Assembly (NCBI GenBank): GCA_019096065.1
Contig: JAGUCH010000002.1
Span: 1,934,501-1,998,500 of the forward strand
Origin: Paracyclopina nana
Taxonomy: Eukaryota; Arthropoda; Copepoda; Cyclopoida; Cyclopettidae
Direction of reading: 5' to 3'
Length of the DNA stretch: 64,000 bases
The translations under genes were made by a program, and so were the position numbers. Below the pieces are notes generated by a model. It had not been told where the DNA came from. It made no database searches and saw nothing but the letters and a program-made list of their open reading frames with translations. This document shows positions 7,139-63,561 of the stretch, in pieces; within the stretch, counting starts at the first letter, position 1, and each line of letters opens with the position of its first letter.

Positions 7139-9893
7139 ATGTGCGTGTATCACTATGAAGATAGCAAGCGAGCAGAAAAGTGGATCTCCATTCTGCTTTT
7201 GGCATGCATTCTCTTCTCCATTGGCTGCTCAGCTCCAATGTTCATTTTGACTTATCCTGGAGACGAATGTCTGCTCTTTGTGTCAGTGCGCGGAGAGGCT
7301 CTCATTTATGGCAATCCTGCAGGCTGCAATTTCATTTCTTACGGCCACGCAATCCTCACAGCCATAGGTATGCATTATTCATTTAAAGGAAATGCCCAAT
7401 TGAATTTATTCTCGTCTTTTCTCATTCCAGCCATTGTTGTCATTTCCCTCATCTTTTGTCGTCAGAAAAAGGGCATTTTGCGGAGAAAACAGCCCAAGGA
7501 AATTGGCTCCAACAAGTAAGGAAAAAAACAAAAATAGCCTGAATTAGCGTTAATAGTGAGTTTTTATTTCAGATCACTCAGGGGCACAGTGGCCTCGCTC
7601 AATAATGGCATTGGGCTGGGGCAAAGTCACTATAATATTCAGTCGGAGGACACAGTGAGCGTTTTTGGCGTTTCTCGCTTCTACAGCACGAAAGCAATCG
7701 TGTTGGCTGTGTTTGCCGCAATTTTCTCTGTGATTTCCGCGCTTGTAATCCTCAGTGGGTACCTCACCACATGCAACGAGCTCCATTATGAGACCCGAAG
7801 ACAAGTTTTGGGCAGAACAACTTTAGGTAAGCGTTTTCCGTTGAAATCGTTGACCTTCATCTCATAGCAGAAGATGGGTCAATTAGTCAATCATTAGTTT
7901 TAGCCCTGAGCAATTTTTCCGAATCTTGTCATGCGAGCAAATTATTGGAGCACAATGGACAAACAGGTTTTTAAAAATGAGTAGCATTTGATAGCACCAA
8001 TTTTGGGGGATTTGCAACCGCGTGGAAACTGTTATTACAGAATTTTCCGCTCGAGATTTGAACTTCCTTTCCTTTGTGTAGCGCGTGAGATAAGAGAAAA
8101 ATACAGAGCAGCGCCACCTAGCGCAGGGAAAAGGAACTACAAAAAATACATTACCACTTCTTCAAATCCATTCACTCATTTTTTTTTTCTCGTTTATTTT
8201 TAAAGTTCAGCAAATCAATTCAATATGGAGAAGTAAGTTTTTTTTGTTTCACTGAAGAAAATGAAGGGGCCATCTTTTGTTAAAGCACGTATATCCGCTG
8301 TTTTACTCCCCTTACCTTGCTAGTGCAGGTATGCTTGAAAAGTTGAATAGGAAGTGGGGAAAAGTCAGATAAAATCCCATTCAATGATCCCATTGTAGTT
8401 TACATGTGTAGATTTTTCCTTAGTCACGCTTTTTATTTAGTACAAAAAAAAAATTAAGCAGAAATTAATTAAGGTTCACAATGAAAAAATTAGATTGATG
8501 CATTAACATTAAATTAAGAAAAGTTTTGTAAAAGAAGCAAAACGTTCCTAGCCGTCAGAGACTATTCTCTGCCGTGACCAGGATTCGAACCTGGGTTACT
8601 GCGGCCACAACGCAGGGTCCTAACCACTAGACGATCACGGCTATCGGGAACTCATGGTCTTCAGATGTCACGAGCGGGTAATTTAATTTTGAAACTTTCA
8701 GGAAGTCCTATTCGAGATTTGAGCATTCAGTGCTGGAGCCTTTTTCGAGACGTGGATTTCCACACCAGATTCCATTTTGACCACTACGAATTTTCTGGTC
8801 AATGGCACGGCCAATACCGAGGCTACAAGCACGGAAGAGTGCATGACTTTGAGAGCAAACATGAGCATTTAATTGATGTTGCCTTAGCGCTGGAATTATC
8901 CCTGTCAAGCACGTGGTTTTGTGCTGTAAGTTTCAACAGAGATCAAGAAAAATAACTACTTCATAACACTTTTTTTCTTGTATTAGGTCTTTTGGGTGAC
9001 CATTACTGTTTTGATGATTCTGCTGAAGAGACGAACAAAGTTTTTGCAAAAAAGAGAATTGGCCGAATCAATGGAGGATGCCAAGATATTTGCCTCTTCC
9101 AGGCAATTGGATCCATCTCAAAATATGCTAATGAAGCCACTTGATCAGGTAATTGATGAGGCCATAAAGCAATCTTCTTTATTACATGAAATAATTTCCT
9201 TTTCAGCTAAGTGTGGTGTCCAATCAGAGCTCAATGCTGAGCCAAAAGCCTAGTATGCTCACTATGTCAACAAATCCAATGGTAAAATTGACAAGATAAA
9301 TATCAATAAGAGAAATTAATATGATTATGTTTTAGGGTGCTTATGTTCAGAGTCCTCAGAGCAATGGATCAGTTCCAGTGGTAGTTCAGCAGCAAATCAT
9401 GTCTCAGCAAGAATTGCTGAACCAGCAAATGCAACAGATGCAGCTGATGCAACAGAGGCTTCACCAGTCTCAGCCAGTGTTGACTCAGCAGCAGATGACT
9501 CAGCAGCAACCTTTCCAGAGACCCATGTCTCAGCCCATGGCTCAGCAGCCTGTGCACTACTCTCAGCTACAAAATGGAATTGTGTTCAGCCAAGCTCCTC
9601 CCCCTCAGCAAAATGGAGTTCAGTATGTGCAGCTGACAAATGGAATGCTGATGCCAGTTCAACAGCCAGCAGCTGCTCAGCACCAAAATTACCCTCCTCA
9701 GCAGCTAGCTCAAACAAATGTGGTTGGCTCTTTGCCTCAGACATCAATAGCATCCACCAAACACCACTATAGCTCAATTGAGGAGTCAAGAATGCAGAAA
9801 TCATTGGATACAACTGATCACAGCAGCCAAAGTGCTCAGCAAAAACAGATGAGTCTCTCTAAAGATGCTGGACTGAAATGTAGCCGAATTTGA
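7139..9893 (+). CDS. TMEM179-like four-transmembrane protein, paralogue 2, glutamine-rich tail
   Basis: Exons 7139-7367, 7431-7515, 7573-7826, 8702-8925, 8987-9148, 9207-9281 and 9336-9893 encode about 528 aa, all phases consistent. The start ATG at 7139 places TM1 about 15 residues in, as in the neighbour. Shared motifs with paralogue 1 are DECLLFV after TM1, GNPAGCNF before TM2 and SGYLTTCNEL at the end of TM3. TM4 (FWVTITVLMILL) is followed by a long cytoplasmic tail dominated by glutamine and methionine (repeated QQQMQ-like units). Intron positions differ from the paralogue, so the duplication is old or introns were gained. The 875-bp third intron carries an antisense tRNA-His gene. Function is unknown; a vesicle or plasma membrane protein is plausible. 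Confidence 0.72.
8570..8641 (-). tRNA. tRNA-His (anticodon GTG)
   Basis: The minus strand folds as a complete cloverleaf: acceptor GCCGTGA pairing with TCACGGC, D-loop TCTAGTGGTTAGGA, anticodon loop TTGTGGC in a paired stem, and T-arm CAGGTTCGAATCCTG. The anticodon is GTG, histidine. It lies in an intron of the plus-strand TMEM179-like gene in antisense orientation. A run of four Ts suitable for Pol III termination occurs about 16-20 nt downstream. It looks intact and functional. Confidence 0.93.
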
Positions 9894-10037: not shown

Positions 10038-11838
10038 ATGAAGTTGTGGCTATTTTTGCTGTATTGTGTGTCATTTTGGTGGATTTATTTCACCATTTCA
10101 TGGCTGACAAACCACTACCACAAGCACTACCATGAAGTCTTCAGCATGGAAAGACCAACTGAAAAGATAACTGCCCCCAAAGTATCAGCTACTTCCAAAA
10201 AAAAGTATTTGAGCATCAAAAACAAAAACATCACAGTCATTTTTCCAGATTTGTGGCTAGGCAAAAATATATCAGAAGTAAAAATGGTCTGAATACATAT
10301 CCAACTTGCTTAAGCTTTATGCTTTATTTTTAGGATGTCATCAAAATGAAAGATGTCAAATCAGCAAAAACAATTCTGTATGCCACAGATGTCTATGGAA
10401 TGGACCACTGGGGAATTGGATTTGACAGTGAGCCTTTTGAAATTCAAGGTGAGGGAATGAAGAATCTGCTTGCATTTCTTTATCATCACATAAGCTACAT
10501 GAAAAGGTTGCAGGGTGCAAAATTGCATACTTACAAATAAAAGAGATTACCATGGACCTGAAAGAACAGACAAATTTGATGCTATCTTGTTTCCTCTCAT
10601 AAAAATGATGAGTGATGAGGTTATGCCAAATCCAAACGTATTTTTTTAAAATAAGCTTCATTTTCAAATTAATTTCAAAGGGAGTGGAAAAGGCCATGGT
10701 GCCAAGAAGAAAAGGTAGTCAAAGATTTGTAGCTGTTTTTGAAGATAGCCCAAGAGTTGAGGGTCTGATTCATGAGAAAATTTCCAGGTAAGCCATGGAA
10801 GCCCCAAAATAATCCGGTTTTAATTATTAGTCCACTAGGGATTTCATAAACTGGACAATGACCTACAGAAGAGACAGTGACATTCCCAACCCTTACGGCA
10901 GAATTGTCCCTCTAAACAATCCGCCTATCTCAACTTTGCAACAAATTGGCACCAATCTGAAAGATCTTGCTGAGCCCAGTGAAACCGTAACAACATTTAG
11001 ACCCAAGTAACTGGGAATTTCCCTAGATGAAAAACCCAATATGACATCATATATTTTATGCAGGCTTGTTGCTTGGGTCGTTTCCAATTGTGAGAAAGCC
11101 CCCAGTAAGCGCATGGAGTATGTGAAAGTTTTGCAAAAATATGTTGACGTGGACATTTTTGGTGGCTGTGGCGCCAAAAAGTGTGCCAATGCCAGTGGCA
11201 CTTTTCCCTGTGATTATGAGATGGCCAAAACCTACAAAGCAATTTCATCTCTATAATTTAGAATAAGCAGTCAAAATTATGCTTTCATTGAAGGACAAAT
11301 TAATGCAATTGTTTTTACTGAAACTGATCGAGATGAAATGGCTTTGCTAATAGTAGTTCTACTTGTCTTTTGAAAACTCAATTTGCACTGATTATGTGAC
11401 TGAGAAGCTGTTCAACAACTTCATTTTGTCCATGGTCCCCATTGTGATGGGCGGGGCAGACTACGAGCTGCATGCCCCGCCCAATTCCTACATAAATGTT
11501 GCGGATTTTCCTTCTATCATGGATTTGGCTCGTTACCTGCTATTTTTAGACGGAAACCAGGTATTATTGAAATTGTTGCCCCATTCCAAAAATGCATCTA
11601 TGAAACTATCATTTATTGAGCTGTTTTTGGATTATTTTAGGAAGAGTATGAAAAGTATTTCGAGTGGAGGAAATCACATGCTATCATCAGAAGATTTCCT
11701 ATTTGTGCTTTATGCGAAATGCTACACGATACCAACTTGCCATCAAAATCGTACTCAAATCTGCACAATTGGTGGTACGGTGAAAATGATGATGAGTTTT
11801 GCATCACTGGAGATGAAATGCCTTATGCTATGAACTAA
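10038..11838 (+). CDS. Alpha-1,3-fucosyltransferase (GT10 family)
   Basis: Eight exons: 10038-10277, 10334-10506, 10544-10637, 10681-10787, 10839-11006, 11064-11238, 11357-11560 and 11641-11838; 452 aa. It is a type II membrane protein with a short cytosolic start and a signal anchor (LFLLYCVSFWWIYFTISWL), as expected for a Golgi enzyme. The GT10 signatures are present: NWTMTYRRDSDIPNPYG, then AWVVSNC, KYVDVDIFGGCG, and LSFENSICTDYVTEKL (acceptor and donor GDP-fucose regions). The enzyme should transfer fucose from GDP-fucose to N-glycans or related acceptors. The intron 10507-10543 is 37 nt. The intron after exon 6 must use a GC donor (AAA/GCAATT) if the conserved KFYLSFEN join is correct. 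Linkage specificity (core 1,3 or LacNAc) cannot be read from the sequence. Confidence 0.9.
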
Positions 11839-12606: not shown

Positions 12607-15600
12607 ATGGCAACTGCAAGAGGATTCAGCCATATTTTATTTTTTGCTTTGGTGGCAGCTTCTAATGCTCAGCTGATCCTGTTTCCTGATCAAGTCTCAG
12701 ACAGCCCAGCTGAGAGCAACCCTGAGAGGTCTCAGCAATTTGGGATAGCATCACTGGCAGTGGCCTCAGCTGAGACTCAGCTCAACCTACTCAATTCCCT
12801 GAATGCTGATCAAAACAGGTATCTATTTTGGATTACTTTTTTTCTTAAAATTGAGTAATAAGTTATATAATATACTTTATGTTTTGACTTCAAGTTTGGG
12901 AGAAAGTGGACAGACTTTAAGGCTCACAGGAGGCTCAGATGTGAACTCTGGACTTGTTGAGATCAAAGCTGAGGGTGATTGGCATCTCATATGCAATGAT
13001 GACTCATCATGGAACATCCAAGCTGCCACAGTAGCTTGCAGACAGCTTGGCTATGACCTTGGGGCCTTAGCTACTGAAACAGGCCCTTCCAGAATTTCTG
13101 ATTTCACCAAGATTGATGCACAAACCCAAAACTTGCCTGTGAGCATTCACTGCCATGGAGAAGAGCCAACATTGAGCAAATGCCAATGGAGTGTAGGAAA
13201 CTCAACTTGTAACAGAGACACTCAGGCCATTTCTCTAGTTTGTGAAAGGCCTTCTTTGGGTTACTGCCCACCAGACTTCACACCCTTCAATAACCAGTGC
13301 TATGGAATATTCACCAACAGTCTGCCATTTCTGGAAGCTCAGGCCTTTTGCCAAGCCCATGAAGGCCATCTGGTAGAAATTCAAGACCAAATGGAGAATG
13401 ATTTCATTTCAGAGCTTGCCCAGAAGCACAATCCTGTCCTCAAGATTTGGACAGGGGGAGTGGTCACTTCTGTGGTCAATCTCCAAGTGGGCATTTGGCA
13501 TGCTTCTCATCAACCCATAGAGTTCAACAAGTTCCTGAGGAAACCTGAGGAGAACCAGTCTTCTGGTGTCTCCCTAGAGCTCAATGGAGATTACTACTTT
13601 TGGACTCCATTTGACCTGAAATCCCCTCTGCCATTCATTTGTGAGAGGCACTTCATAGACATTGGATGCTTGAGTGACCAACATGGCTCTGAATATGTTG
13701 GAAATGCTAGTAGAACTGAGACTGGGCAAGAATGTCTCTTCTGGAACACTCCAGGATTTGTTCAGTTGTTTTCTGAGCAAGACTCCTGGGAGCACAATTT
13801 TTGCAGGAATCCTGGAGGTCTTGAGGAGCAGCCCATTTGCTACATAGACCTTGAGACTTATGATTACTGCAGAATTCCTAAATGTGGGCAATCAACTCAG
13901 AGAAGAGATGCTGTGTCTGATTTGGAGAACATTTGCAATGAAGCTTTCCCCAGGACAGATCCTTATCCTTCTCATGAATCTGGAGTTTGCCCTCAAGAGC
14001 AATTCAGTTGCCAGCCAGGAGAGTGCATTTTCAACACTCATGTGTGTGATGGTGAGCCTGACTGCTCCAATGGACAAGATGAGGAGAACTGCCTAAAATA
14101 CACCAGCTTGTATGTAGTTGAGCCAGGATTCAAGCTCAAGACCAACATTGATGCCAAGAATGGAGTGTCCGAGGAAGAGTGTGCCAAAATGTGCTCCCAA
14201 TCCAAGCACTGCACTTGCACCTCTTTCTCTTACAACAGTGAAAGGCATAAATGTCTCCTGGGCAATAGGTATTCCAATGAGCCATTTGATTCGCTGCTTG
14301 AGAGGAAACCTTGGAATTATTACTCCCTCAATACATCAGTAAGCAATGGGTGCAACAGAGTGAAAAGGCCAGCCTCTTCTGAAATTGAAGGCTTAAGACT
14401 GGTCAGTGGTCCAGTGGTGGATATTGTCAATGTGAAAATCAATGGAACTTGGGGTGGAGTTTGTGATGATGGATTCAGTTTCAATGAAGCTCATGTGATT
14501 TGCAGACAGCTTGGCTTTGATCTTGGAGCTGAGGAAGTCATCAATGGCCAGGGCACTGATCCAAATGATCCAATGCTGTTGCATGACATGATCTGCAGAG
14601 GTCATGAAAAGCACATCACTGAGTGTGCTTTTGAAGACCACACTCAGCATAGGCATGAATGTGCTGGAACTGAAAAGGCTGGTCTCAGGTAATTACTTCC
14701 GTGAAAAGTCAATGCTTAGTAATAGCTTATAAAAAAAAATTCAGGTGCAGGAAGACAGAAAATACTTGCCTGGATTTTGAGTGGCACTGCAAGACAAAGG
14801 AATGCATCCATGTGAATAATTTGTGTGATGGAAAGCATGAGTGTGCTGATGGATCTGATGAAGATCCCTTCCATTGCTCAGCTCCAACCCAGGTAAAAGA
14901 AAACCTTATAATGTTAAGGCCATATAAAGACTTATTTTGTTTTAGATCCGCTTGGTTGATGGTCCAGATGCAAGATCTGGAAGAGTGGAAATTATGCATA
15001 AAGGTGTATGGGGGACGATTTGTGACGATCACTTTGATGTGGAAGAGGCTCAAGTCATATGTCGAATGCTTGGATTCCCTTCAGAAAATGCTAGACTGTA
15101 TAATGGATCTAATGATTACAGAGGAGATGGTCCAGTCTGGATCAGACTGACAGCTGACAAAGTGTGTTCCGGCAATGAACTCAGCATTGCAGAATGCAAA
15201 GTAATTCCTAATATACTGCAATAATAAAGAGTTGATTCAAAAAATTAAAATTCAATTGCAGGAGCCAGATTTGTGGAATCATGATCACCACTGCAGCCAT
15301 GCTGAGGATGTGGCAGTCACTTGTGATTTCCCTGTGGTGGCAGATTTGTATACCAGCACTCAAGAGCCAAAAGATGTGGATGATTTCAGGGGCAATTTTG
15401 AGACTGCTGACTTGCTCTCCAATGAAGCTGTTGTCTCTTTGGCTGGGCCATCAGAAGATTGTGGTAAAACCAGGCTTGACTTCAGAATTGATGCCATGCC
15501 AAGAATAAGAGGTGGATCCAGTGCATTTAGAGGAGATCATCCTTGGCAAGCCAGTATCAGAGTGAAGGGAAAAGATAACACCTATCATTGGTGTGGTGCA

Positions 15601-16456
15601 TCCATTATTAGCCATTTCCACTTGATTTCTGCTGCTCATTGTTTAAGGGACTTTCCATTAAGCACCTACATTGTGAGAGTTGGTGACCACCTGATAGGTA
15701 AATATTTTATTCATTTAAAAAAACAACAAAGATGGCAGTTATCAATCTTACCTTAAAGATGTGGTTGAAACTGAAGAGGCAGAATATGAAATTGAAAAGG
15801 TTGTCTACCATGACAACTTCAATGTTGGACCATACCTGAATAATGACATTGCCATTGTTGTGATCAAAGCCAATGATTCTAGTGGAATGCAGTTTGGCCA
15901 ATATGTCTCCCCCATTTGCCTGCCATCTTCCAATTTGGTCTACCCACCCAACCTCAACTTGACCATCACTGGATGGGGCAAAGTTGGCTTTGAAGGTGCT
16001 CATTCAGATGCTTCTGGCTTGCCAAGGTTGAATGCTGAAGGAGCTGTCATTGAGCTGCAAGAAGCCACAATTCCACTGCTTTCAAGCAACAAATGCACTG
16101 CACCAAAAGTAAAGTTTTGTTATTTATTAAGTAAAAATTGTTTAAAAAAGTAATTTTAATATAGGTGTATGGCAAAGAAAAAATAAGCATTGGTATGTTT
16201 TGTGCTGGGGATTTGGATGGCAAACAGGATGCTTGTCAAGGAGACTCTGGAGGCCCTGCTGTGGCTGAAGTCAATGGCAAATACACCTTATTTGGTATTA
16301 AACTATGAAAAAATCAAAAAATCTTAAATATAAATGATTTTATCCCAAGGAGTGACAAGCTGGGGCTATGGATGTGGAAGACCAAACAAGCCAGGAGTTT
16401 ACACAAAGGTCAGAGAATACAGTAAATGGATTGAGGACAAAATCAAATCAAGTTGA
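12607..16456 (+). CDS. Neurotrypsin-like mosaic serine protease (SRCR/CTLD/kringle/LDLa/PAN/trypsin)
   Basis: Exons 12607-12818, 12895-14688, 14745-14892, 14946-15200, 15262-15697, 15759-16108, 16165-16294 and 16350-16456 encode 1143 aa. Order by rough residue: signal peptide 1-21; SRCR 79-187; C-type lectin-like 193-320; kringle 326-401 (CRIPKC end); LDLa 435-470 ([16 protein letters not shown]); PAN/apple 472-560; SRCR 569-670; LDLa; SRCR; trypsin domain from about 883 after RIRGG. The catalytic triad is intact: His in SAAHC, Asp in NNDIAIV, Ser in GDSGGP, with DACQGD before the serine giving trypsin-like specificity. It is a secreted zymogen, related in architecture to neurotrypsin/Tequila-type proteases. 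Exon 2 packs most non-catalytic domains into one 1.8-kb exon. A convergent protease gene ends 150 bp away. Confidence 0.9.
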
Positions 16457-16607: not shown

Positions 16608-19128
16608 TCAAGGAGTCTGCTCATGGCTGCTAAAGTAAGTCCAATCATGCATGGTTTGCCTGACCCATGCCAAAGTGTGAGCAACTTTATGAAAGATTAC
16701 TGGTTGGGCCCCACACACACTGGGCCCATTGGAAACAATGCCAATCAGTGTCCACCTGTCCTGGTCATCCTGGATTTGCAGGCCACCTCCGGAATCTCCA
16801 GGGCAGGCACTGGTGTCAGTGTAGGAGCCTCCAGCACACAATTGGTCACTGTACACTCCCAGACCAGTTTGAATGGCACATCCATAATCAGACAAAATGG
16901 GAACAGCTGCTGCCTGAAGGATATTTGAGTGGGGAGCCCCTTCCTCACGTCCCAGTCGACCCCAGCCTACCACTGTGGCCAGGGTTCCTGGGGGAGGCTC
17001 CAAAGGCTCCTGGGGCATGCATATGGGAGCCACATTGGGAGCAGGCCTCACTGGCCTCTCTAACAGCATGAGGGCCACGTCAAATCGAGGCTCACTCTCA
17101 ATCACCCCATTGGACCTGTATCTCATGACATTTCTGTATTCCGGATGCCTGAAGACATAGGTGACCAGGTAGGATTCTGGAGCGTAGGCCTCATCACTGA
17201 GCATGTCATATTCACCAAGTATGACTTTGTAAGTGATTTCACTTTGTGAGATCTCAGTTGAACAGTCTGGACTCAGGCAGTACTGGGTGCAATGGCCTGC
17301 TGTCAGGATCCATTTGGGGTCAATCAGGGTGCCCCCGCACACCTTGTCAATGCCAGGACCCTTGATTTTGATGTGGGCAGTCCAGGGAAACTGGCCATAG
17401 CCGGCCTCCAGCCCACCCATGATTTTCCTCTGAGCATTCTTGCTAATGCCACAAGTGTAGTAAGAGACATCCGGATCATGAGGAAGAGCTGGAGTGCTCC
17501 CCTGAATGGTATTAAAAATGGGATCCCTGGGATCTGGACCAATGACTGAGTCAGTGTACTGAAAAAATTGAACATCATCAGGATGTGGGGAATTATGCAC
17601 ATCATTTGTGGTAAGGTGTGTGCTAGCATGAAAAATCCCTTACTTGTACGTTTGGGCTGTAAAGTCCCAATGATCTTCCGGATTTCTGCCTATTTCGTTT
17701 TGGAGCTCCCCAAGATGTACAGCAAGAGTCAAACATTCCAGGGCATTCTTCGTGAGCTTCCCAGTCCACTTTTTGCCCGGAAAACATGCACGTAAACATG
17801 TTTTGGCAAGTTCCGGAGCAACCGGTTAACCGGTTTTGCAGGTGCTTTTTCCGCCTGTGTCGATGTTGTCTGGGCCTGCGATTTCTTGGCCTGCGATGAT
17901 AATTGTCTTCATCTGAAATATAATATGGAAAAAAATTGCAAAATCAGGAACTACATTTCCAGCTGCCAAAACAAAAATGTTATGCACAATAAGCAAGATT
18001 TGCACAGCAGCAGCAGACGCATGAATTGATGAATATTTTTCCTTGAATGCATTGGGGAGACAAGCATTTTTTCAATTGAATGCGAATTTCCCATGGTCAT
18101 TTTGCAACAGAAAAGGGGCAATTAAAGCTGGCTCTTTCTCCCATAAATCACAGTCAGCCAATAGATAGTCAGCAAAATTTGCCAATCATCGTTTTGGCAC
18201 TGATTTTGGCAGGGCTAAAAACATACATGCATATTGCAAAATAATCATTTTTATGGCCATTTTGTCATACTTCTCATAACTACAACTTCCTTGTTAATTA
18301 TTGCATTGATCAAAAAGCATGACAAGGCTCGAAATCAGGTTTTAAGCTAAGTTATGCACGTACCTGGGATGAGAAGCTCGTCACTTTTTTGAAATTCAAT
18401 TTCGTTTGTTAATTGAGAGTCCACAGAGGGCTCTGATGGCACAACTACAGCTTCGGCCTCTTCTCGCGTTGGAACCCAATATGGCCTCTTATTGCCCACA
18501 GACTTCCAATTGTCACGAATATTGGACTGAATTTGCTCAATGGTGGAGGACGTGGAGATGGGGAAGAATGCCTGCAAAAAATCCCGATGAATTTCTGATA
18601 TCCTGAATTAAAGTGTGTTGCCAAGCCAAGTGGAAAAAAGGTCAATTTTCAAGTGGGAATGCAGCAGCATAAAAACCACACATCCATGTTGAAATCGATC
18701 CTAATGTGTTCGCATTTAAAAGAGAAATTTTGGCGGAAAAAAAATTCCATTTTATTGCTAAATTACACCGAAGAAGCGGACGAATTTGGCAATGATAATT
18801 AGCAATCTATTTTTGGCCATCTATTACTAATTATGGCAGCTAGAAGACAATTAAGCTGGCATTGGTGCTAATTCACGTACTGATGACCTTTTCAGGGCTT
18901 AATGATGAAATTGTCTGAGTAAAAAATTAATGCTGCCTGCGGTTTCACAGCTGATTATGAAATAAGAAGATGGACTGGACTTACCTGTCGATTCCCAGTT
19001 AACTGGATTGATTCGTGTGAATTTCCATAAAAAGTCCGCACTCGATTTGGCACTTGTACGACTTCTTGTGCCCAATGCAGTTGAGGCAGGAGAAGCAAGA
19101 GGGGAAAAGCCCTTGGCAAGGACTTCAT
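16608..19128 (-). CDS. Secreted clip-like S1 serine protease
   Basis: Exons 19128-18985, 18571-18364, 17912-17644 and 17558-16608 encode 523 aa, all in phase. The start MKSLPRAFPLLLLLPQLHWAQ is a signal peptide. A Ser/Thr-rich and then Arg-rich linker leads to a compact cysteine region (CSGTCQNMFTCMF ... CPGMFDSCC) resembling a clip-type or other disulfide knot. The S1 domain starts after RKIMGG. The triad is present: His in TAGHC, Asp in FDVALMLL, Ser in CPGDSGGG, so it should be an active enzyme rather than a serine-protease homologue. An extra cysteine-containing insertion follows the catalytic His (QYCLSPDC). Proteases of this type act in arthropod haemolymph cascades (melanisation, clotting, Toll); the specific role here is inference. 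Confidence 0.87.
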
Positions 19129-23205: not shown

Positions 23206-23480
23206 CTTTTATATGATGGAAAGCAATTTTCGCATGTATAATTCAGTTTACCAATTTGTCTCAGTTCATATTACTACACATATATAAAAGCTCTGACGTT
23301 TAACTTTATCAAGTGACACACATTATAAAGTATTTTATAAGGTGTGTTGCTCCTCTGTTACAATGATATTGTCCTAAGAAGTAAATCCGAAAAAAGGAGA
23401 AAAAATGCCATATATGGGGATCGAACCCTGAATGCCAGGATTAGGAATCCAGCGCTCTACCGACTGAGCTACCATTACAG
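23206..23480 (-). mobile_element. tRNA-derived SINE, copy A
   Basis: A tRNA-like head (about 23408-23480, minus strand) has recognisable A box (TAGCTCAGTCGG) and B box (GGTTCGATCCC) but mismatched acceptor, anticodon and T stems, so it is not a functional tRNA. The body and tail (TCAGAGCTTTTATATAT, then CTGAATTATACATGCG) match copy B near 42737-43012 over about 260 bp in the opposite orientation. Confidence 0.72.
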
Positions 23481-26900: not shown

Positions 26901-27299
26901 GGCTCATTGCACAGTGTGGAAATCGAATCCAAAGAAGCCCTCCAATCAAGCATTTTTTCATGTCCAGACAAAAAATGCCAAGAGTAAATTAAAAACGGAT
27001 GCTCATTTTGAAATCAGTATGGAAGGTTTTTTCCTGGTCAATTTTCCCACGATTGGATTGGAGCTGAAAAGGAATGCGGCACTTAATGGTGCTCTTTTAC
27101 GTTATTCAACGCCCCAAACATGCGACCATTATGGCCTAAACAGCAGCCTTTATTCATATAGTACCTTCATGCAGTGACATTTATCCGAGCGCGAGGGCAA
27201 AGTTTGGATATGACTAAAAACTGTAAACAAAGAGGAGAAAACTGGATCTCAAGTCATAGCATATTTGGCCCCCGATTTGATGAAGCAGTTGATACAATT
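23951..27299. other. Gene-free intergenic DNA
   Basis: I see only short frames without splice or start support. Small simple repeats occur (ATCATCATCATC near 25545, TTCTTCTTCTTC near 26185). It should contain the promoter of the gene starting at 27300. Confidence 0.45.
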
Positions 27300-30200
27300 A
27301 TGACACCAATGAGCACATTTTTAATTTTGCTCCTTTGTGCCTGGCCAACTTTTGCCAATATTTTTGCAGACAAGTTCTTTTGTGGCTCTGAGAGACATCC
27401 TAGTGAATCAAGAATACTCATTTTGACAGCCAGTGACAAGTACTTGTCTCCTATGCTGCTGACAAATTTGACTGGGAAATCAGTGCCTTTACTAGGTGAA
27501 GAAAAAAGCCTGAGTTATCCTATTGCATTGAGTGGTTTTTTGTCAGCTGACCACTGTGTCACATTTCTAGAGCTGCCCCAAGTTTTCTCCAGCTTGGACA
27601 TTCTTGAAGTGACTCACCAATTGCAGAAAAAGTGCTTTGATAAAACCATTCTTTTTGTTGATGCCACTCAGAAAGTGGACACAGGGGAAAGTGAAGATGT
27701 ATTAGTTTCTCACATTCAGTTGCTGGATTTGGCTTATGGCGCCAAATGGCAAAAAACACTGGGAATGCTTGTGCTGGTAAGCAATTTGCCAACTCCTAGG
27801 GTGACCAGATTGACTGAGCTGTATGTGAAAAGAATCTTCAAGAAGGTCTCTGAAAGCTACCAAGTTTTGCCTAAAGTAAGAGAAATGAAACCAATCTGAC
27901 TATCTTTCATGTTGAGTTCCCTAGATACTACTGATGACAGAAACTGAGCCTAGAAAGGTATTAGTGGATTTCTTAAGCCACATTCCTGCAATGTCAGAAG
28001 TAGGACAGGGATGTCATGGGTCTTCATGTTTGGCTAATCCCAATGGCTTTTATCATGGTGGCATTCCTTGGATTGGACACCCAATTAACATTGATGTCAG
28101 CCAGGACACAACCAAAGTCACAATTAATTGCTACTCAACTGAGCCTTCACTGGCTCTAACCCTAAAAAAAGATAACTTGATCAGGGGAGTACAAGAGGCA
28201 GACCAACTGATGGTTGTCAATGATTTGAGCATAGCAACCTTTACAATTGACAACCCGATGGACAAACTGGGAAGATATTACTGTGCAAATTCCAAGGGTG
28301 TTGAATCCATGAATTTTCTGCAAGTTAATTACAGCCCTCAAACTTGGACTGCTTGGACCCCCTGGACCACTTGTGAAAACGTAGCCAGAGATAAAGTGAC
28401 AAGAAGCAGAGATAAAAATGGTGTCACTCAAAGACAAACAAGGTTCTGTAGATGCTCTGATTTGGCAGAATTACCCAGGCCAAGGTGGTAAAAAAATTGG
28501 AAAATACTTCTGGAAAAAATAATAGCTAGACATTGATTTAGAATCCTTCTTCTTGGGAGGACAGGAGTTGGCAAATCCACTTTGGGAAATCAATTATTCG
28601 GTGACAAACTGACTTTTGCTGTAGGCCATAAATCCACTTCTAAGACTGAATCAATCTACTGGGCATCTGACCATTACTTAGGCACGGGCCAGTGTGTAAC
28701 CATTATTGACACTCCAGGAACTAAGGATACTGAGGGTAAACTTTTTTGCTCCAAGTGTGTGAGAAAATTCAGCATGGAATATCACTTTTTCCAAATTCCT
28801 TGTCAAATTGAGAATTCCTTTCACGTTTTGTGCTGCTGCTGCTGCTGAAATCACTCTTTGAACAATGACATCAAGCTCTCAATGGCAAAAATGTGAGCAT
28901 TTATTTGGCATGATATTAAGCCACACAAAAAGCAGAATGATGATGATGACTCGAGCTTAAATATGAGAATCAAGATGGATTTGGTTCACATCCTCATTTT
29001 TCAGGAAGAGACTACAAGCACAGCCTGGAAATGCAGAAAATTCTCAGGAATCACATAAAATCAATTGATGTCTTTCTGCTTCTGTTCAGCGGAGCTAGCA
29101 CAAGGTACGTAATTTTTTGTACAATTTCTGTAATTATAGAAGCCATTTTGTGGGTAAAGGTTTGATGAGTCCACTGTTGAACTACTGCTCTGGTATGAGG
29201 CCATTTTTGGAGCTGAAATGTGGAAACATGTTGTAACTGAGACTACCTTTTGGTCCCACTCTCAGCTAGCAGCTGACCAAAGATGGCAAGAAAGAGGTCA
29301 AGTATGCATTTAAACTTAATTATTGAGTCTGGATGATTTCAATTTCACGACCTTGGCTCTGCTTCAAAATCTTCTTTGTTGCTTCTCATTTTTCCCTTGT
29401 TTATTGGCCTTTGTAGCTGGATGAAGTTAAAAGACAGGATTTATGGGATTCCAAATTCCATGCACCCCCTTTAAATGTGGACCCTTCAATCAGGATTCCA
29501 ACCATGTTTATAGACCCTGTCCTAGACGTTTTTGTTGATCCTTGTGAGCCTTCCAATAGGAGCCCCAGCCAAAGAGAAGTGGAGAAATTCCATGAATGGA
29601 CACAAAGGCAAATTATTTTTCAAAGATGGGCAAAAAAAAGGCCATAATAATCATAGGTTTTACACCCTTTCTTCCTTAGATTTCAGGCAGTTTTCATGAG
29701 CTTGCCTCCCTTCAACTGTGAGGAAAGATGTAAAGCACCAGATGCATTTTTTTCTGGCTCTCCATGGCTGTCATACCCTGAAAATGGCACACTTTTCATT
29801 AAACATGCCTCCAATCAGCCGCATCACTTGGAGTGGCAAATATGGAATGGCCTAAGAAATGAATCCAAGCTGACCAACTTTGCAACTAAACTTAACTCAA
29901 TAGTCATTCATCCTAGCTCAGAAGAAACGACTGCTTATCAAGGGCTGGCATTAAGAGTAGCTAAAAAGTGGTTGTCAGACAAAATTCTTAACGTCAGGCT
30001 GTTTGTCAAGGCAAGTAATGAGAGCATGGAAAAAAATAGCACAAGTTGGACACTCTCAATAGAAAATGAAGTGGACAGTTCAGTTGCAACTATAAAGCTG
30101 GTTAAAGATGCTCAGTTTGGACCATGGACAAGTTGGTCATCATGCTCAAAATCATGCATTGGCTTAGATGAGAAATATGGAATCAAGTCAAGGCAAAGGA

Positions 30201-33037
30201 TTTGCATAGAGGGATTCAATGGCGGCTTAAAATGCTCTGATTTGGCCAATTCCAAGAGTGAGATTCAAATTTGTGCTGGAGAAAACGAAAATCAGCCCAA
30301 AATTTGTCCTGTTAGCTACACATGGTCTTTATGGACTCCTTGGAGCAACTGCTCAGCATCTTGTGGACATTCAGTCAAGCAGAGAACGAGAACTTGCATA
30401 GATGGTCAATATGGTGGGCCCAAGTGTCCTGAATCCCATCAGACAATGCAGCAGAGTTGCAATTCTGAGGAATGCCCCATTAATTGCATCCTGGGACAAT
30501 GGCAGCCTTGGTCTCAGTGCAGTGACAACTGTGTCAACCTTGGCAGAAATAATGTGACATCATTCCCAAGAAGATTCCGTTCTAGGCCCATCATTCAAAA
30601 GGCCAACAAATTTGGAACACCTTGTGACAACCTCAAATCTGAAGAAGTGGAGCCTTGCAACATGCTCCCATGCGGAGTGAATGGCAAATGGAGAGAATGG
30701 TCAGAGTTTTCCCCGTGCTCAGTCACATGCGGGGGAAATGGAACCAAAACCAGAAGCAGAACATGTAATGGACCTTTTTATGGCGGCCAACCATGCAGTG
30801 GTCCAGACAAAGAAACTGAAGCCTGCTCAGCAAAAATAGAGTGTGACTGTGACCACCAGTGGTCACAGTGGTCAAGTTGCTCCAAAGCTTGTGGCCTTGG
30901 GGGAACCCAGAGGAGAGCCTTAAAGCCATGCAGTGGAGCAACAACAACAGATGCAATTGCAGAACAGGTTGTGCCCTGCTTTGAAAAAATGTGCTCAGAT
31001 GAGTTTTTCAAACTGGATTTCATGGAGGTGGAATTAAGCTCCAGTTTGCATGCTGGAAGTGACAATTCCTGGAGAATCAGGCTGTGGGAGGATGACAGGC
31101 AACTTTGCATTACTGATTGGCTTGACAGGTTTGCTATTAGTTGTGTTGTGTGATAAATGCCAACATCTTTGCATTGACAGGAAGTGCAACTTTTCAGGCA
31201 TGGTGTCAATGATTGGGAAAGGGGATCCAGGACCCAATGGAGGCACAAAATGGATCTGCCAAGTGATGCATTTTTTGGTAGTTGCATTGAGCTCCAAGTA
31301 GCAAGAGATGCATTGCCACAAAATTTGTCAGCTGAGATTTTGGGCTATTACAACAGAGATGACATTCAGGTGGAAAAGTTGTTGGTTTCATTCCACTCTC
31401 CCACCTGGATCAGCCAGCCAATTCAATATGAAGCTAAACATGTAGGTTGGAGCAAGACCAATATGATTAGTTATATTGATGGTGGAGTTCATGTGATTGC
31501 ACCACTTACATTGCTACACCAAGGTACATTATAGATAATGGCCTCAATCTTCTAATATGATCCATTTTTGCATTGTATCATATATTACAGAGAGGCATTG
31601 CTGCCAAAAAATCCAAATCTTCATTCCAAATGGGAGCGCTCGCCAAAAACATGCAGAAGGGATTTACAGGCTTGTAGATGAGACCCGAAGCACCAACTTT
31701 TGGGCATTCAAGCATGAAACTGAGAAGCTGGAAGTATTCAAAAGGTAAGTAATAAAACTATTCTTTAGTAAAAGCTTGAAACGATACTTAATTTCATATT
31801 GCAGGGATGATGGAAATTGGTACTTTGGCAAGAGTCACAAGTCACGTAATCCGAGGCAGATTTATTTGGTCAATGTTGATCAAGGTAAAAAAGCTTGTGT
31901 ACACTTACTTGATCCTTCCTCATGGACATTGGCAAAAGATGGCTCTTCTTCGATTTCTGTTGCTATAACTTGTTTCATGGGAGAGGAATAAACGCGACGA
32001 CAATGATGTTGCCTTTACTCTAAGCCTCTTTGTTGCGAGATTTTTTCGTCCTTGGCACTTAGATCATTGATCATGTGACAAAAATCAACGTCATTGAGCA
32101 GCGGAAGATGGTTCAAATCACAAGGATGGAAGAAAATGTTTGCTACATCACAAAATCTCAGGGTTCTGTAAAACATGCCATTATCCAGCCATAAAAGAAA
32201 AACATGTCTGAGCTTCATCTCAAAATGGCATGGTACATGTTGTGTCAAAAGACAAATGAGATAAGAGTTTTTATAGGAAATTTGCTCTAAAAAGTGGACT
32301 ATTATTACATGTTGTATGGCTGTATCATGTCACATGCAAGCCTATTGATTTTCAGTCACACACATGCGATTTCAAATATGGTAGGAAAAGCCAGTAAGAG
32401 TAGACCTTTCAAGATGATACAGACGCATAAATTCGAGTCTGAAGATAGTCTTGAAGTCCCTGAAGAGCCCAAGGAGAGTGAGGAAGAAACTGAGGCTGAG
32501 GAGTTGGACCATTACAACAACAAAGACAACCATGAGGAAACCGGGGATAACACCTCTGAAACCTCATCCACAATGGGATTTATGACAGCTGTCAGAATTG
32601 CTAGGTGGATGGCAAGAGCATATGGATACGTAGCAAGGAAAAGAAAGGCTTACTTGATGAGCTCGGTAAATGGCATTTTGAGCTGAATTGGCTCTAAACT
32701 TCATTCCAGTTTTTAGGATCATAGTAGGCAATTATCCAGCTCAGATTTGATGCCAGTCATTCAGTCTAGAAGGCAAAGCAAGGTTGAGGCTGGTACATCT
32801 CGAGGCTCCACTCCCAAGCCACCGAATCAGGATCAGGGTGATACCATAATTGCTACCAAGTTAGTGGGAGATGAGTATGAAGATCAGAAGATCATTTGCC
32901 AGTGGGTGGCTACAAGCTATGGTGAAGTCAATCAAGCATATCATGAAGCATATAGTCGCGAAATCCTCAGGCAAATTCGCGATCAGTTGAGCTCTGCAAG
33001 TTCAAGCAGAACCAAAACGTCCTCTTGGTTTGGTTGA
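27300..33037 (+). CDS. Secreted Ig / TSP1-repeat protein with internal AIG1 (GIMAP)-type GTPase domain
   Basis: Twelve exons: 27300-27875, 27925-28484, 28542-28735, 29005-29104, 29160-29301, 29417-29607, 29680-31144, 31181-31523, 31591-31744, 31805-31884, 32385-32665, 32717-33037; about 1468 aa. The start MTPMSTFLILLLCAWPTFA is a signal peptide. About 200 residues with Rossmann-like strands follow, then an Ig-like domain (VTINCYS ... GRYYCAN) and a TSP1-like start (WTAWTPWTTC). Next comes a G domain with P-loop LLGRTGVGKSTLGNQ, G3 IIDTPGTKDTEG and AIG1-like helices. Then follow five TSP1 repeats (WTSWSSC, WTPWSNC, WQPWSQC, WREWSEFSPC, WSQWSSC), and an acidic and basic tail without TM. The exon 6/7 intron needs a GC donor (AAAG/GCAAAT); intron 31145-31180 is 36 nt. 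The exon 10/11 intron (500 bp) could hide an exon. Confidence 0.75.
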
Positions 33038-47704: not shown

Positions 47705-47830
47705 ACTGGTTAAAAGCTAATCTGTAAAAGGCTATTTGGTGTAAGGCTAATTGGTTAAAGGCTAATTGGTAAAAGGCGAATCGGCCAAAGGCAAGATTGG
47801 TAAAAGGCTATATAAAAAAAGGCAAATAGC
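47705..47830. repeat. Degenerate minisatellite, about 16-bp unit
   Basis: About seven imperfect copies of AAAGGCTAATTGGTTA-like units run head to tail. They end just before the larger tandem array that begins near 47880. Confidence 0.65.
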
Positions 47831-47879
47831 AGATGGTTCATTAGTGATAGTGTTTGATTGAAAGAACAAAGCTGAATAT

Positions 47880-48235
47880 TGAAATTTTCCCTCCTCTCGA
47901 ATAAACAATGGTGAAATTTTCACTCCGCTCGAAAAAATAACGTTGAAATTTTCGCTCCGCTCGAAAAACTTAAGTTGAGATTTTCGCTCCGCTCGTAAAA
48001 AAATTGAATTTTTCGCTCTCTTCGAAAAAAACAATGTAGAATTTTTCGCTTCGCTCGAAAAATTAACGTTGAAATTTTCGCTCCGCTCGAAAAACTAAAG
48101 TTGAGATTTTCGCTCCACTCGTAAAAAAATATTGAATTTTTCGCTCGCTTCGAAAAAAACAAAATAGAATTGTTCGCTTCGCTCGAAACAATAGCATTGA
48201 ATTTTCGCTCCGCTCGATAGAGCAAAGTTGAATTT
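47880..48235. repeat. 126-bp higher-order tandem array built on TTCGCTCCGCTCGAA units
   Basis: Units of about 31 bp, each carrying an imperfect palindrome TTCGCTCCGCTCGAA followed by an A-run, are repeated about ten times. Four successive variants form a block that recurs with a period of 126 bp (47938 and 48064 start the same block). The minus strand stays open in parts and would give a serine/lysine/phenylalanine repeat peptide, but this follows from the repeat composition. Confidence 0.8.
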
Positions 48236-49139
48236 AAGCGCGCGAATCGAGTCTAAACATATAATTCAAATATTTTTCATCACTAGTACAGTTTTTCGTT
48301 TTTCTCGCGCTTTTGATGATCTCGAAAAAAATGCAATGTCTTACCTTAATGACCGGGTCGGGCTGTCAGGTCAATTCCCCCCCAAAAAATCAACTTCTGA
48401 GGCCAACAACAGCCTCAGGATTATTCACTTTGAATTTTGATTTATGATGCTACGATTTGACGAGAATCTAAATTCGAGAATTTTCTGTTATTCAGAAATA
48501 ATCCGATTCGAAAACTGAGTCAGCAACTCAGCTGAAGCTCAGCGCAGTTGTTCTCTTAGAGTTACCAGATCGTTGTTTGGCTTTGTCAGAAAACGCCGTG
48601 ATTTATTTTTAGCAAAGTAACAAGAGGGCGGGCCAATTTGTAGGTACAAATGTAGTTCCTAATGATCCGAACGAGCTCAATTTGCACGAAGAGCTAAAAA
48701 ATGATGAGGTAATCTTGTCACAGTAATTGAGCCAAAAAAATGGAAGCGAAGCTGAAGGTCAAAAAGTTGAAAAGCAAATAAACTCAATATTGAGGCAGGA
48801 AAGGTGACAGTAAATTCCAAAGAAACATGCTAATAAAATCCATCAATTTGATGGGTGCCAAGATAAGAGCGATGTAGGGGACGATTTTGAAACAAAGTTG
48901 AAGTTATCGAGCATTGATTTTTTTTGGACGAGCAAAGAAGTTGCTAATGATGATTGCCTTATGTGGTAAGAAGATGGGCCCCAAAGATAGCCGCAAGTTG
49001 GGCTGTCAAAGTGACGAAAAATGTGCAACAAAGAGGCAACAAATCAACATCACTCATCCATTGTGATGGAACAATTTGGCAGAAGCAAATTTTCCACCTT
49101 GTAAATGATTTGGGGAGGAAAAAAGCCGCATCTGGTAGC

Positions 49140-62239: not shown

Positions 62240-63119
62240 ATGCCCTTTGACATTCAATTTAAGGTAGATAAATACTTTTAAATATTTTCAATGAAGTGAT
62301 ACTAAAAAAATTATTTAGCATCCAGCCACATATTTGGTGTGTGGTCCAGCAGGTAAATACAAGGTGAATCTTTTTTTTTTCATTTATGCTGACCGAAAGT
62401 CAATTTAGGCTCTGGAAAAACAACATTTATACAAAATCTTCTATTGGAGGCAGACAAACTCATCTATCCCAATCCTCCCGTCAAACTGCTTTTCTATCAA
62501 GAGTATCAGCCCATTTACCAAACACTTTTAAAAAATGGTTTGATTACCAGACTTATTGAAGGTATTCCACCCTATGAAGAAATACGAGAAATTTTAGCCA
62601 GCTATAAAAAAGAAGGCAGTTTTGCCATCTTCGATGATTCGCTGCAAAGTTTTGGTGAACTACATCAACTTTATACTGTTGGTATGTTTTTGTCTCGACC
62701 AACATTCAACATGCCAACAAAAATTATTTCCTTTAGGCTCAAGGCACTTGAATGCGAGCACGTTGGTGGCATCACAAGTTTTATTTGGTGAAGGGCCCCA
62801 TTTACGCACCATTAGTCTGAATGCAACATACTTGATTTTGATGAAATCAGTGCGTTCACAGCGACAAATTTCAACCTTGAGCTCGCAAATTGCACCTTAT
62901 CAATCATCTTTTATTGTCAACAGTTATCTGGCTGCAACAAGAACGCCTTATTCCTACCTAATTCTTGACATGCACGCCTCACAAAGCGATATAGTTCGCC
63001 TGCGAAGCAAGATTTTCTCGCACGAAGGTAGAGAAACTCTGCTTTTGTGTCCCATCATCATAACTTTTGTTTTTATTCATGTTGCAGGCATCCCAGTATG
63101 TTTTGTGAAAAACAGTTGA
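62240..63119 (+). CDS. Virus-derived DNA-packaging ATPase (Polinton/adintovirus type), spliced
   Basis: Five exons, 62240-62263, 62319-62352, 62409-62681, 62737-63027 and 63088-63119, give 217 aa; all four GT-AG introns (55-60 nt) are in phase. Family features: a Walker A loop at the start, whose glycine-rich part is split by intron 2; a Walker B strand ending in two acidic residues (FAIFDD); a conserved motif RTISLN followed by an arginine-containing sensor region (SVRSQ); and a C-terminal tyrosine/leucine strand. These are the hallmarks of the A32/FtsK-HerA-like ATPases that package DNA in Polintons, adintoviruses and related viruses. The frame is uninterrupted. Viral versions I know of are usually uninterrupted genes, so the introns are the odd feature; they have the size of host introns. 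It is followed by two further element genes. Confidence 0.8.
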
Positions 63120-63183
63120 ACTAAGCAATGCATGACAGTTTGCACATATAGCTTGATGAAAAAAAATAACTTCACTGATCACA

Positions 63184-63561
63184 ATGAGCAACCGTTCATC
63201 CTCCAAGGTGACTGAAAAAAAGTGCAAACTTTTATTTCTCAACACACTTAAAAAGTTAACCAATGAAGAGAGAAAAGATCTGCTTTCAAGGCTAAATCCA
63301 CAGTCGATCAATGACTTGGGGACTTTTATTTTTAACGCCATTCATTCCGATTTGGGTCTTTCAAAGGCCACGAAAGAAAAGCTACGGAAGCAGCTGAGCG
63401 AATCTTCAACTGACTTAAGGTTCATTGCAGACCGTTCCAAGCCAGTTGAATTGAGACGAAGACGTGCTAAGAAGCAAAGTGGCCAAGGCATTGGACTGAT
63501 TTTATCAGCCCTTGTGCCAGCAATCACTAGTTTAATTGCAAATAGAGTTAGCAAACAATAA
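63184..63561 (+). CDS. Basic core/pX-like protein of a Polinton/adintovirus-type element
   Basis: Intronless, 125 aa, starting at ATG 63184, 64 bp after the ATPase stop. The N-terminal two thirds are helical and lysine-rich (LNTLKKLTNEERKDLL). A basic patch (ELRRRRAKKQSGQG) precedes a glycine-containing hydrophobic C-terminus (LILSALVPAITSLIANR). This layout matches the small basic core or pX-like protein often found beside the packaging ATPase in such elements, thought to bind DNA or membranes in the particle. The identification rests on layout and neighbour, not on alignment. The frame is intact. Confidence 0.6.
   Translation: MSNRSSSKVTEKKCKLLFLNTLKKLTNEERKDLLSRLNPQSINDLGTFIFNAIHSDLGLSKATKEKLRKQLSESSTDLRFIADRSKPVELRRRRAKKQSGQGIGLILSALVPAITSLIANRVSKQ

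What the first reader, a model, noticed from the sequence alone, without database searches (positions are those of the whole stretch)
27300..33037. Secreted TSP1/Ig protein containing an intact GIMAP-type GTPase domain
The sequence shows a signal peptide, Ig domain, the start of a TSP1 repeat, then a G domain with P-loop GRTGVGKST and G3 DTPG, then five TSP1 repeats in one phase-consistent reading frame. AIG1/GIMAP GTPases are known as cytosolic immune proteins; TSP1 repeats are extracellular. A G domain in a secreted chain is unexpected and could be a new kind of pathogen-binding or adhesion protein.
Basis: partly seen in the sequence, partly recalled or inferred. Interest (0 to 1): 0.88.

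Follow-up and report, generated by a model that had tools for sequence, protein, structure and literature searches.

The report
Secreted GTPase with thrombospondin repeats
A small crustacean, probably a copepod, appears to encode an exported protein in which a switch-type GTPase, normally an inside-the-cell immune protein, is fused to thrombospondin repeats; related genes suggest a family of exported GTPases.

Summary
All splice phases fit; one intron is GC-AG. The model ends at 31991, not 33037. The decisive test was relatives: 9 of 9 hits of the first search carry AIG1 and TSP1 together, and P0001 reproduces both doubtful junctions. One relative is a complete ORF from a Neocalanus copepod transcriptome. 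Three other AIG1 loci of this genome also have signal-peptide-like starts. G1 and G3 are kept in 17 of 17 relatives, but the guanine-reading G4 Asp is absent in 28 of 28 rows examined (present in 15 of 15 fish GIMAP rows). Best reading: an extracellular, nucleotide-operated TSP1 protein, perhaps an immune or damage-response factor, with the dead N-terminal G domain as built-in partner. The one-chain architecture is well supported; export is inferred from sequence; nucleotide binding and function are untested.

The parts
27300..27359 (+). signal-peptide-like start (MTPMSTFLILLLCAWPTFAN), exon 1; an upstream in-frame ATG at 27210 cannot be excluded
   Evidence: translation, judged by eye; P0017 and P0013 have similar hydrophobic starts
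27405..27993 (+). degenerate G-fold ('pseudo-GTPase') domain, exon 1 (to 27875) and start of exon 2 (from 27925); no P-loop, no DxxG
28012..28332 (+). Ig-like domain 1, exon 2
   Evidence: Pfam Ig_5 E 0.027, below cut-off; V-set_CD47 E 0.013, below cut-off, in P0016
28345..28484 (+). TSP1-like fragment and linker CRCSDLAELPRPR, end of exon 2
   Evidence: same kind of linker before the P-loop in P0001, P0014, P0016, P0017; TSP1_spondin E 0.023, below cut-off, in P0016
28483..29716 (+). AIG1/GIMAP-type G domain, exons 3-6 (28542-28735, 29005-29104, 29160-29301, 29417-29607) and start of exon 7
   Evidence: Pfam AIG1 6e-15; 150 of 222 positions identical to P0014
28555..28581 (+). G1/P-loop GRTGVGKST
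   Evidence: G1 kept in 17 of 17 relatives P0001-P0017
28708..28719 (+). G3 DTPG
   Evidence: kept in 17 of 17 relatives P0001-P0017
29245..29259 (+). TFWSH at the G4 position, lacking the base-reading Asp
   Evidence: Asp in 0 of 28 rows here against 15 of 15 fish GIMAP rows
29608..29679 (+). GC-AG intron between G domain and the second middle domain
   Evidence: join reproduced in P0001
29717..30115 (+). second middle domain (Ig-like by eye only), starting CEERCKAPDAFFSG, exon 7
   Evidence: its start is aligned in relatives (the two cysteines in 16 of 17 TSP-type rows); no Ig profile match at E <= 1
30116..30994 (+). five TSP1 repeats, exon 7
   Evidence: Pfam TSP_1 5.5e-35 (four stretches), TSP1_spondin five stretches
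31004..31435 (+). C-terminal module 1 (CITDWLDRHGVNDWERGS), exons 7-8
   Evidence: local match to C-termini of P0005, P0011, P0012, E 7e-5, 29 columns only; no Pfam match
31599..31991 (+). C-terminal module 2 (GIYRLVDE) and stop codon, exons 9-10 (31591-31744, 31805-31991)
   Evidence: weak match to P0003 C-terminus and P0002 N-terminus, E 0.0023, probability 12%, 55 columns

Best explanation
The locus encodes one exported multidomain protein of a copepod-type family of extracellular AIG1 (GIMAP-like) GTPases. It enters the secretory pathway by its signal peptide, is disulfide-bonded and glycosylated, and acts outside the cell. The second G domain binds and probably hydrolyses a purine nucleotide and changes its G-G contacts with nucleotide state, as cytosolic GIMAPs do (established knowledge, recalled); the degenerate first G domain is a non-catalytic built-in partner. 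The TSP1 array and C-terminal modules bind surfaces (glycans, matrix, microbes or damaged cells) and give multivalency. I think it most likely a haemolymph or matrix immune/damage-response factor whose assembly is set by nucleotide, either loaded in the Golgi or released from damaged cells. Shown: gene model, domain set, family, conservation of G1/G3, absence of the G4 Asp. Inferred from sequence: export. Inferred only: nucleotide binding, switching, disulfides, immune role (about 0.35 for the full mechanism).
For: One open frame over 10 exons. AIG1 6e-15, TSP_1 5.5e-35. 9 of 9 proteins carry AIG1 and TSP1; P0001 matches the exon 2-3 and 6-7 joins. P0004 (1171 aa, AIG1 and TSP1, hydrophobic start 2.56) is labelled a complete ORF of transcriptome GFUD, which is Neocalanus flemingeri. 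Hydrophobic start (best 10-mer >= 1.9) in 10 of 17 TSP-type relatives P0001-P0017. Three further AIG1 loci of the genome have signal-peptide-like starts by eye: C8 in the G-domain exon itself, C2b and C7 by joins that can be made in frame. TM-type relatives: 87 of 100 M-start hits with a hydrophobic N-terminus, 113 of 114 with a hydrophobic 18-mer after the G domain, exactly two Cys between P-loop and DTPG in 114 of 114. TSP-type: a Cys before DTPG in 16 of 17 rows, 0 of 15 in fish. G1 and G3 in 17 of 17. The G domain is better conserved than the other modules against P0014 and P0001.
Against: No transcript of this very gene was available. The G4 Asp is absent, so guanine specificity, or nucleotide binding itself, is unproven. 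Extracellular GTP is scarce (general knowledge). Nothing tests the immune role. The hydrophobicity test is crude: 6 of 15 fish GIMAP rows, taken as cytosolic, also reach 1.9 (P0021, P0024, P0027, P0030, P0033, P0034), 13 of 100 TM-type hits fail it, and 7 of 17 TSP-type relatives fail it, among them P0001, a long close relative; some of these sequences look truncated. In the TSP-type the number of Cys between P-loop and DTPG is one in 5 of 17 rows, the window included, so no pair can form inside that stretch there. The AF2 model of the intact G domain in P0016 has low confidence, so the site could not be inspected. One of the four own-genome loci (C7) is below the AIG1 cut-off (25.1 bits).
Confidence: 0.6

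Rival explanations
1. Both G domains are structural only: the AIG1 fold is used outside the cell as a rigid protein-binding module, and no nucleotide cycle takes place.
For: G4 Asp absent in 28 of 28 rows; the first G domain has no P-loop and no DxxG in 4 of 4 sequences; cysteines in the switch region of many relatives may pin it.
Against: P-loop Gly/Lys/Ser and DTPG kept in 17 of 17 relatives, with a Thr at the switch I place in 28 of 28 rows, although the Ig-like region 1 aligns only over short stretches with P0014 and P0001.
Confidence: 0.25
2. The protein is a developmental or extracellular-matrix/adhesion component (spondin-like) and the G domain acts in secretory-pathway assembly, not immunity.
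For: TSP1 repeats match TSP_1 and the spondin-type profile about equally in the window (5.5e-35 and 2.8e-33); the paper on snail AIGs calls their role in invertebrates uncertain (abstract start).
Against: Module shuffling among relatives (PAN, Hint, beta/gamma-crystallin-like) looks to me more like recognition proteins; GIMAP/AIG1 genes are immune-linked in the coral paper and in the lancelet paper's account of other animals (passages).
Confidence: 0.3
3. Two adjacent genes: an Ig/TSP1 gene with a GIMAP gene lying in it, falsely joined by the gene model.
For: The exon 6 frame runs to a stop at 29645 if the GC donor is not used; one donor is GTGGTA.
Against: Relatives have the same order in one chain, including a transcriptome ORF labelled complete; both junctions align in P0001; no stop in 1292 codons.
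Confidence: 0.03

Closest known systems
GIMAP/IAN (AIG1, PF04548) GTPases
   Same: G domain over the Pfam cut-off; P-loop, switch I Thr, DTPG; immune-linked family
   Different: described members are cytosolic as far as I recall; here a signal-peptide-like start, Ig-like and TSP1 neighbours; the G4 Asp is missing and a Trp stands just before its place in 28 of 28 rows
Coral and snail AIG1-Hint proteins (PMC3723955, PMC7053062, passages read)
   Same: AIG1 domain combined with other modules; P0013 here also ends in a Hint module
   Different: the word thrombospondin does not occur in either main text; the snail paper found no signal peptide in any AIG gene
TSP1-array proteins: spondins, properdin, ADAMTS-like
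   Same: tandem TSP1 repeats with WxxW motifs in an apparently exported protein
   Different: none that I know of (recall) holds a G domain; a fish spondin-1 matched the profile (P0018) and has no AIG1 domain listed
Copepod TM-type AIG1 proteins (e.g. P0058, Lepeophtheirus salmonis, 'AIG1-type G domain-containing protein')
   Same: signal-peptide-like start, AIG1 domain, Trp at G4 in the 8 rows aligned
   Different: no TSP1 domain listed among the 120 hits shown; a hydrophobic segment after the G domain; two Cys between P-loop and DTPG

Membership tests
AIG1/GIMAP GTPase | score above the Pfam AIG1 gathering cut-off | tested here: met
   55.6 bits against 27
AIG1/GIMAP GTPase | G1 GxxGxGKS and G3 DTPG | tested here: met
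   window and 17 of 17 relatives
AIG1/GIMAP GTPase | G4 [TS]xxD for guanine (motif recalled) | tested here: not met
   0 of 28 rows against 15 of 15 fish rows
AIG1/GIMAP GTPase | cytosolic, no signal peptide (recalled) | tested here: not met
   hydrophobic signal-type start by eye in the window gene and three other loci; no trained predictor was available and the hydrophobicity control was imperfect
AIG1/GIMAP GTPase | GTP binding, nucleotide-dependent dimers | not testable with these tools
   needs biochemistry
G-fold of the N-terminal domain | three-dimensional similarity to G domains | tested here: met
G-fold of the N-terminal domain | AIG1 by sequence | tested here: inconclusive
   single sequence: -1.1 bits by hmmsearch and no AIG1 match in Pfam; four-sequence profile: hhalign local score 26.4, 20 column shuffles at most 18.7, but probability only 8%
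TSP1 repeat proteins | TSP_1 above cut-off | tested here: met
   119.8 bits against 21.6
Immunoglobulin superfamily | Ig profile above cut-off | tested here: not met
   first region 13.9-15.3 bits against 27.3; second region no match at E <= 1; called Ig-like only

The most novel reading that the evidence does not exclude
This lineage has moved its AIG1 GTPases out of the cell: secreted TSP1-bearing forms and membrane-anchored receptor forms pair through their G domains and read extracellular nucleotides leaking from damaged or infected cells. Loss of the G4 Asp, with a Trp fixed just before its place, would let them bind ATP or any purine, making them nucleotide-gated opsonins and receptors, with a pseudo-GTPase built in as regulator.
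Probability: 0.2. Interest if true: 0.92.

Novelty: new variant of a known kind. Interest (0 to 1): 0.74.

Why it matters
P-loop GTPases are treated as an intracellular class. A conserved family, with a member seen in a transcriptome, that keeps the phosphate-binding motifs in what looks like an extracellular chain would raise the questions of what nucleotide it meets there and what the switch controls. It also adds an AIG1 branch to a group (Ecdysozoa) in which a 2013 survey detected none (PMC3723955, passage read; nematode AIG1-like genes and weak arthropod matches were reported in 2019, PMC6872716, passages), and offers a tandem pseudo-GTPase/GTPase in one chain.

Tried and rejected
Two-gene reading: rejected because relatives keep one chain. 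The first exon model was wrong at exons 7-10, corrected. AF2 of window exon 1 alone failed. Sequence comparison of the N-terminal domain with the G domains: single-sequence hmmsearch and hhalign were negative; the profile gave low probabilities, and the end-to-end global alignment appeared only with the smaller G alignment (174 columns, probability 15%), not with the larger (44 columns, 1%); the shuffles were run only against the larger one. Foldseek on the P0016 model gave low TM-scores (query-normalised 0.19-0.27 in the 50 rows shown) and does not say which of the two G domains matched; the VIA-align ranges point to residues 20-267. Pfam AIG1 as a genome probe is not specific: the control rang in 12 of 14 prokaryote genomes, over the cut-off in 8, so the own-genome loci were judged on their translations; three of the four are over the cut-off, and the count is a lower bound. 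The tree left out 6 of 44 rows beforehand (five taken for near-copies, one truncated row); the TSP-type group had support 83/99 (not starred), the tool warned of long branches, and the place of C7 is unsure. The join of the C7 TSP1 exon to its G domain was not established. Species not identified: copepod is inferred from relatives.
Full report
Gene. The + strand region 27300-31991 gives a 10-exon frame of 1292 aa: exons 27300-27875, 27925-28484, 28542-28735, 29005-29104, 29160-29301, 29417-29607, 29680-31128, 31198-31523, 31591-31744, 31805-31991. Eight of nine introns are GT-AG and one (29608-29679) is GC-AG; sizes are 49-269 bases.

Domains. Pfam finds AIG1 in the spliced G domain (6e-15, 55.6 bits, cut-off 27) and TSP_1 in exon 7 (5.5e-35, four stretches), with five units by the spondin-type profile. 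The first Ig-like region is below cut-off and the second has no Ig match at E <= 1. The C-terminal part has no Pfam match, but two pieces recur in relatives: a short match to the ends of P0005, P0011 and P0012 (E 7e-5 over 29 columns) and a weak one to P0003/P0002 (E 0.0023, probability 12%, 55 columns).

Is it one chain? A protein search with residues 1-720 gave 9 proteins at E <= 0.001 among 7989 scored candidates; 9 of 9 carry AIG1 and TSP1 by precomputed Pfam. P0001 reproduces the exon 2-3 join (CRCYDLTELPRPRIVLLGMTGVGKST) and the exon 6-7 join (FLEWTSRFADYF to CEERCQAP). P0004 is labelled a complete ORF of transcriptome GFUD, which PMC8176732 (passages read) names as the N. flemingeri female reference transcriptome.

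Wider search. A profile of P0001-P0009 gave 26 proteins at E <= 0.001 among 7991 scored: P0001 again and P0010-P0034. Of P0010-P0017, P0010 and P0013 carry AIG1 and TSP1 models; P0011, P0012 and P0014-P0017 list AIG1 only (P0011 has a TSP_1 match below cut-off; P0014-P0017 are 473-529 aa and look partial). P0018 is a fish spondin without AIG1; 15 others are fish AIG1 proteins and one is from Dictyostelium, none with TSP1 listed.

The working G domain. G1 and DTPG are kept in 17 of 17 relatives P0001-P0017. In the alignment, 28 rows of this group (the window, three own-genome loci, P0001-P0016 and 8 of the 120 listed TM-type hits) all have a Thr at the place I take for switch I, none has the G4 Asp (15 of 15 fish rows do), and all have a Trp just before that place. 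A Cys lies just before DTPG in 16 of 17 TSP-type rows and 0 of 15 fish rows; TM-type relatives have exactly two Cys between P-loop and DTPG in 114 of 114 examined (120 of 260 hits were listed, 114 had a P-loop by my pattern). Against this, the TSP-type rows vary: one Cys in that stretch in 5 of 17 (the window among them), two in 5, three in 5, eleven in 2. Fish rows have one Cys there in 13 of 15, at another place. I read the cysteines as a sign of an oxidising compartment; disulfides are not shown. The G domain is better conserved than its neighbours: 150 of 222 identical to P0014 and 125 of 222 to P0001, while the TSP1 array is 116 of 295 identical to P0001 and Ig-like 1 aligns only over short stretches with both.

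Export. The hydrophobicity test (best 10-mer in the first 45 residues at least 1.9) is passed by 87 of 100 TM-type hits that start with M and have the P-loop at residue 25 or later, and by 10 of 17 TSP-type relatives; 7 of 17 fail, P0001 among them; 6 of 15 fish rows also pass. A hydrophobic 18-mer after the G domain is present in 113 of 114 TM-type hits. No trained predictor was at hand. Extracellular location therefore rests on the signal-like starts together with TSP1 repeats and cysteines.

Genome context. The AIG1 profile gave four loci in the 92 Mb genome, three over the cut-off (lower bound, probe not specific). C8 has its hydrophobic start in the same exon as the G domain and a later hydrophobic stretch; for the second C2 locus two, and for C7 six, GT-AG joins link such a start to the G domain in frame, none verified by a transcript. 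The second C2 locus ends in a hydrophobic segment; C7 has a TSP1 exon downstream whose join is not established. Among the 120 listed hits of the C8 protein, those whose organism can be read are Lepeophtheirus salmonis (2 rows) and GFUD/Neocalanus (6 rows); P0051 carries a Tk locus name that I recall as Tigriopus kingsejongensis. Hence 'copepod', an inference.

Tree. With 38 of 44 rows, TM-type (97/94) and fish (100/99) form supported groups, TSP-type 83/99; the window's nearest row is P0014, 68% identical.

Literature. PMC3723955 (passages): AIG1 not detected in ecdysozoan genomes then available; AIG1-Hint proteins in coral. PMC6872716 (passages): AIG1-like genes in nematodes and distant matches in arthropods. 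PMC7053062 (passages): no signal peptide in any snail AIG gene; AIG1-Hint there too. PMC12373286 (passages): lancelet GIMAP variety and an immune account of other animals' GIMAPs. No held paper was found on an AIG1-TSP1 protein; most subscription papers are not held.

Mechanism. Shown: gene model, modules, family, conserved phosphate-binding motifs, absent G4 Asp. Inferred from sequence: export. Inferred only: nucleotide binding, intramolecular pairing with the degenerate G domain, surface binding by TSP1, immune or damage role.

Noticed in passing
window 12803-16150 (+) and 16611-17639 (-): Open frame with SRCR, Kringle, LDL-receptor A, PAN and C-type lectin domains (12803-14689), a trypsin piece further on (15205-15753), and a trypsin frame on the other strand.
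   Followed up: partly
window 62393-63558: Two ORFs without Pfam match at E <= 0.01, the first with a GSGKTT motif; nature unknown, perhaps a mobile element.
   Followed up: partly
   Followed up: partly
window 11357-11830 (+): GT10 fucosyltransferase C-terminal part, 1.5e-26.
   Followed up: no
window 47765-48252 (-): Repetitive open frames with recurring FERSENFN/RAERK-like units.
   Followed up: no
P0013: 1393 aa relative ends in a Hint (hedgehog-type autoprocessing) module, 1.8e-30, after its TSP1 repeats, and has a Cys/Lys-rich insert between P-loop and DTPG.
   Followed up: partly
L007 (C7:1610001-1620000, - strand): Another AIG1-like gene with a signal-peptide-like start and a TSP1 exon a few hundred bases downstream; join not established.
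   Followed up: partly
window 23406-23478 (-): Weak tRNA match (31.4 bits, cut-off 29) besides the good tRNA-His at 8570-8641.
   Followed up: no
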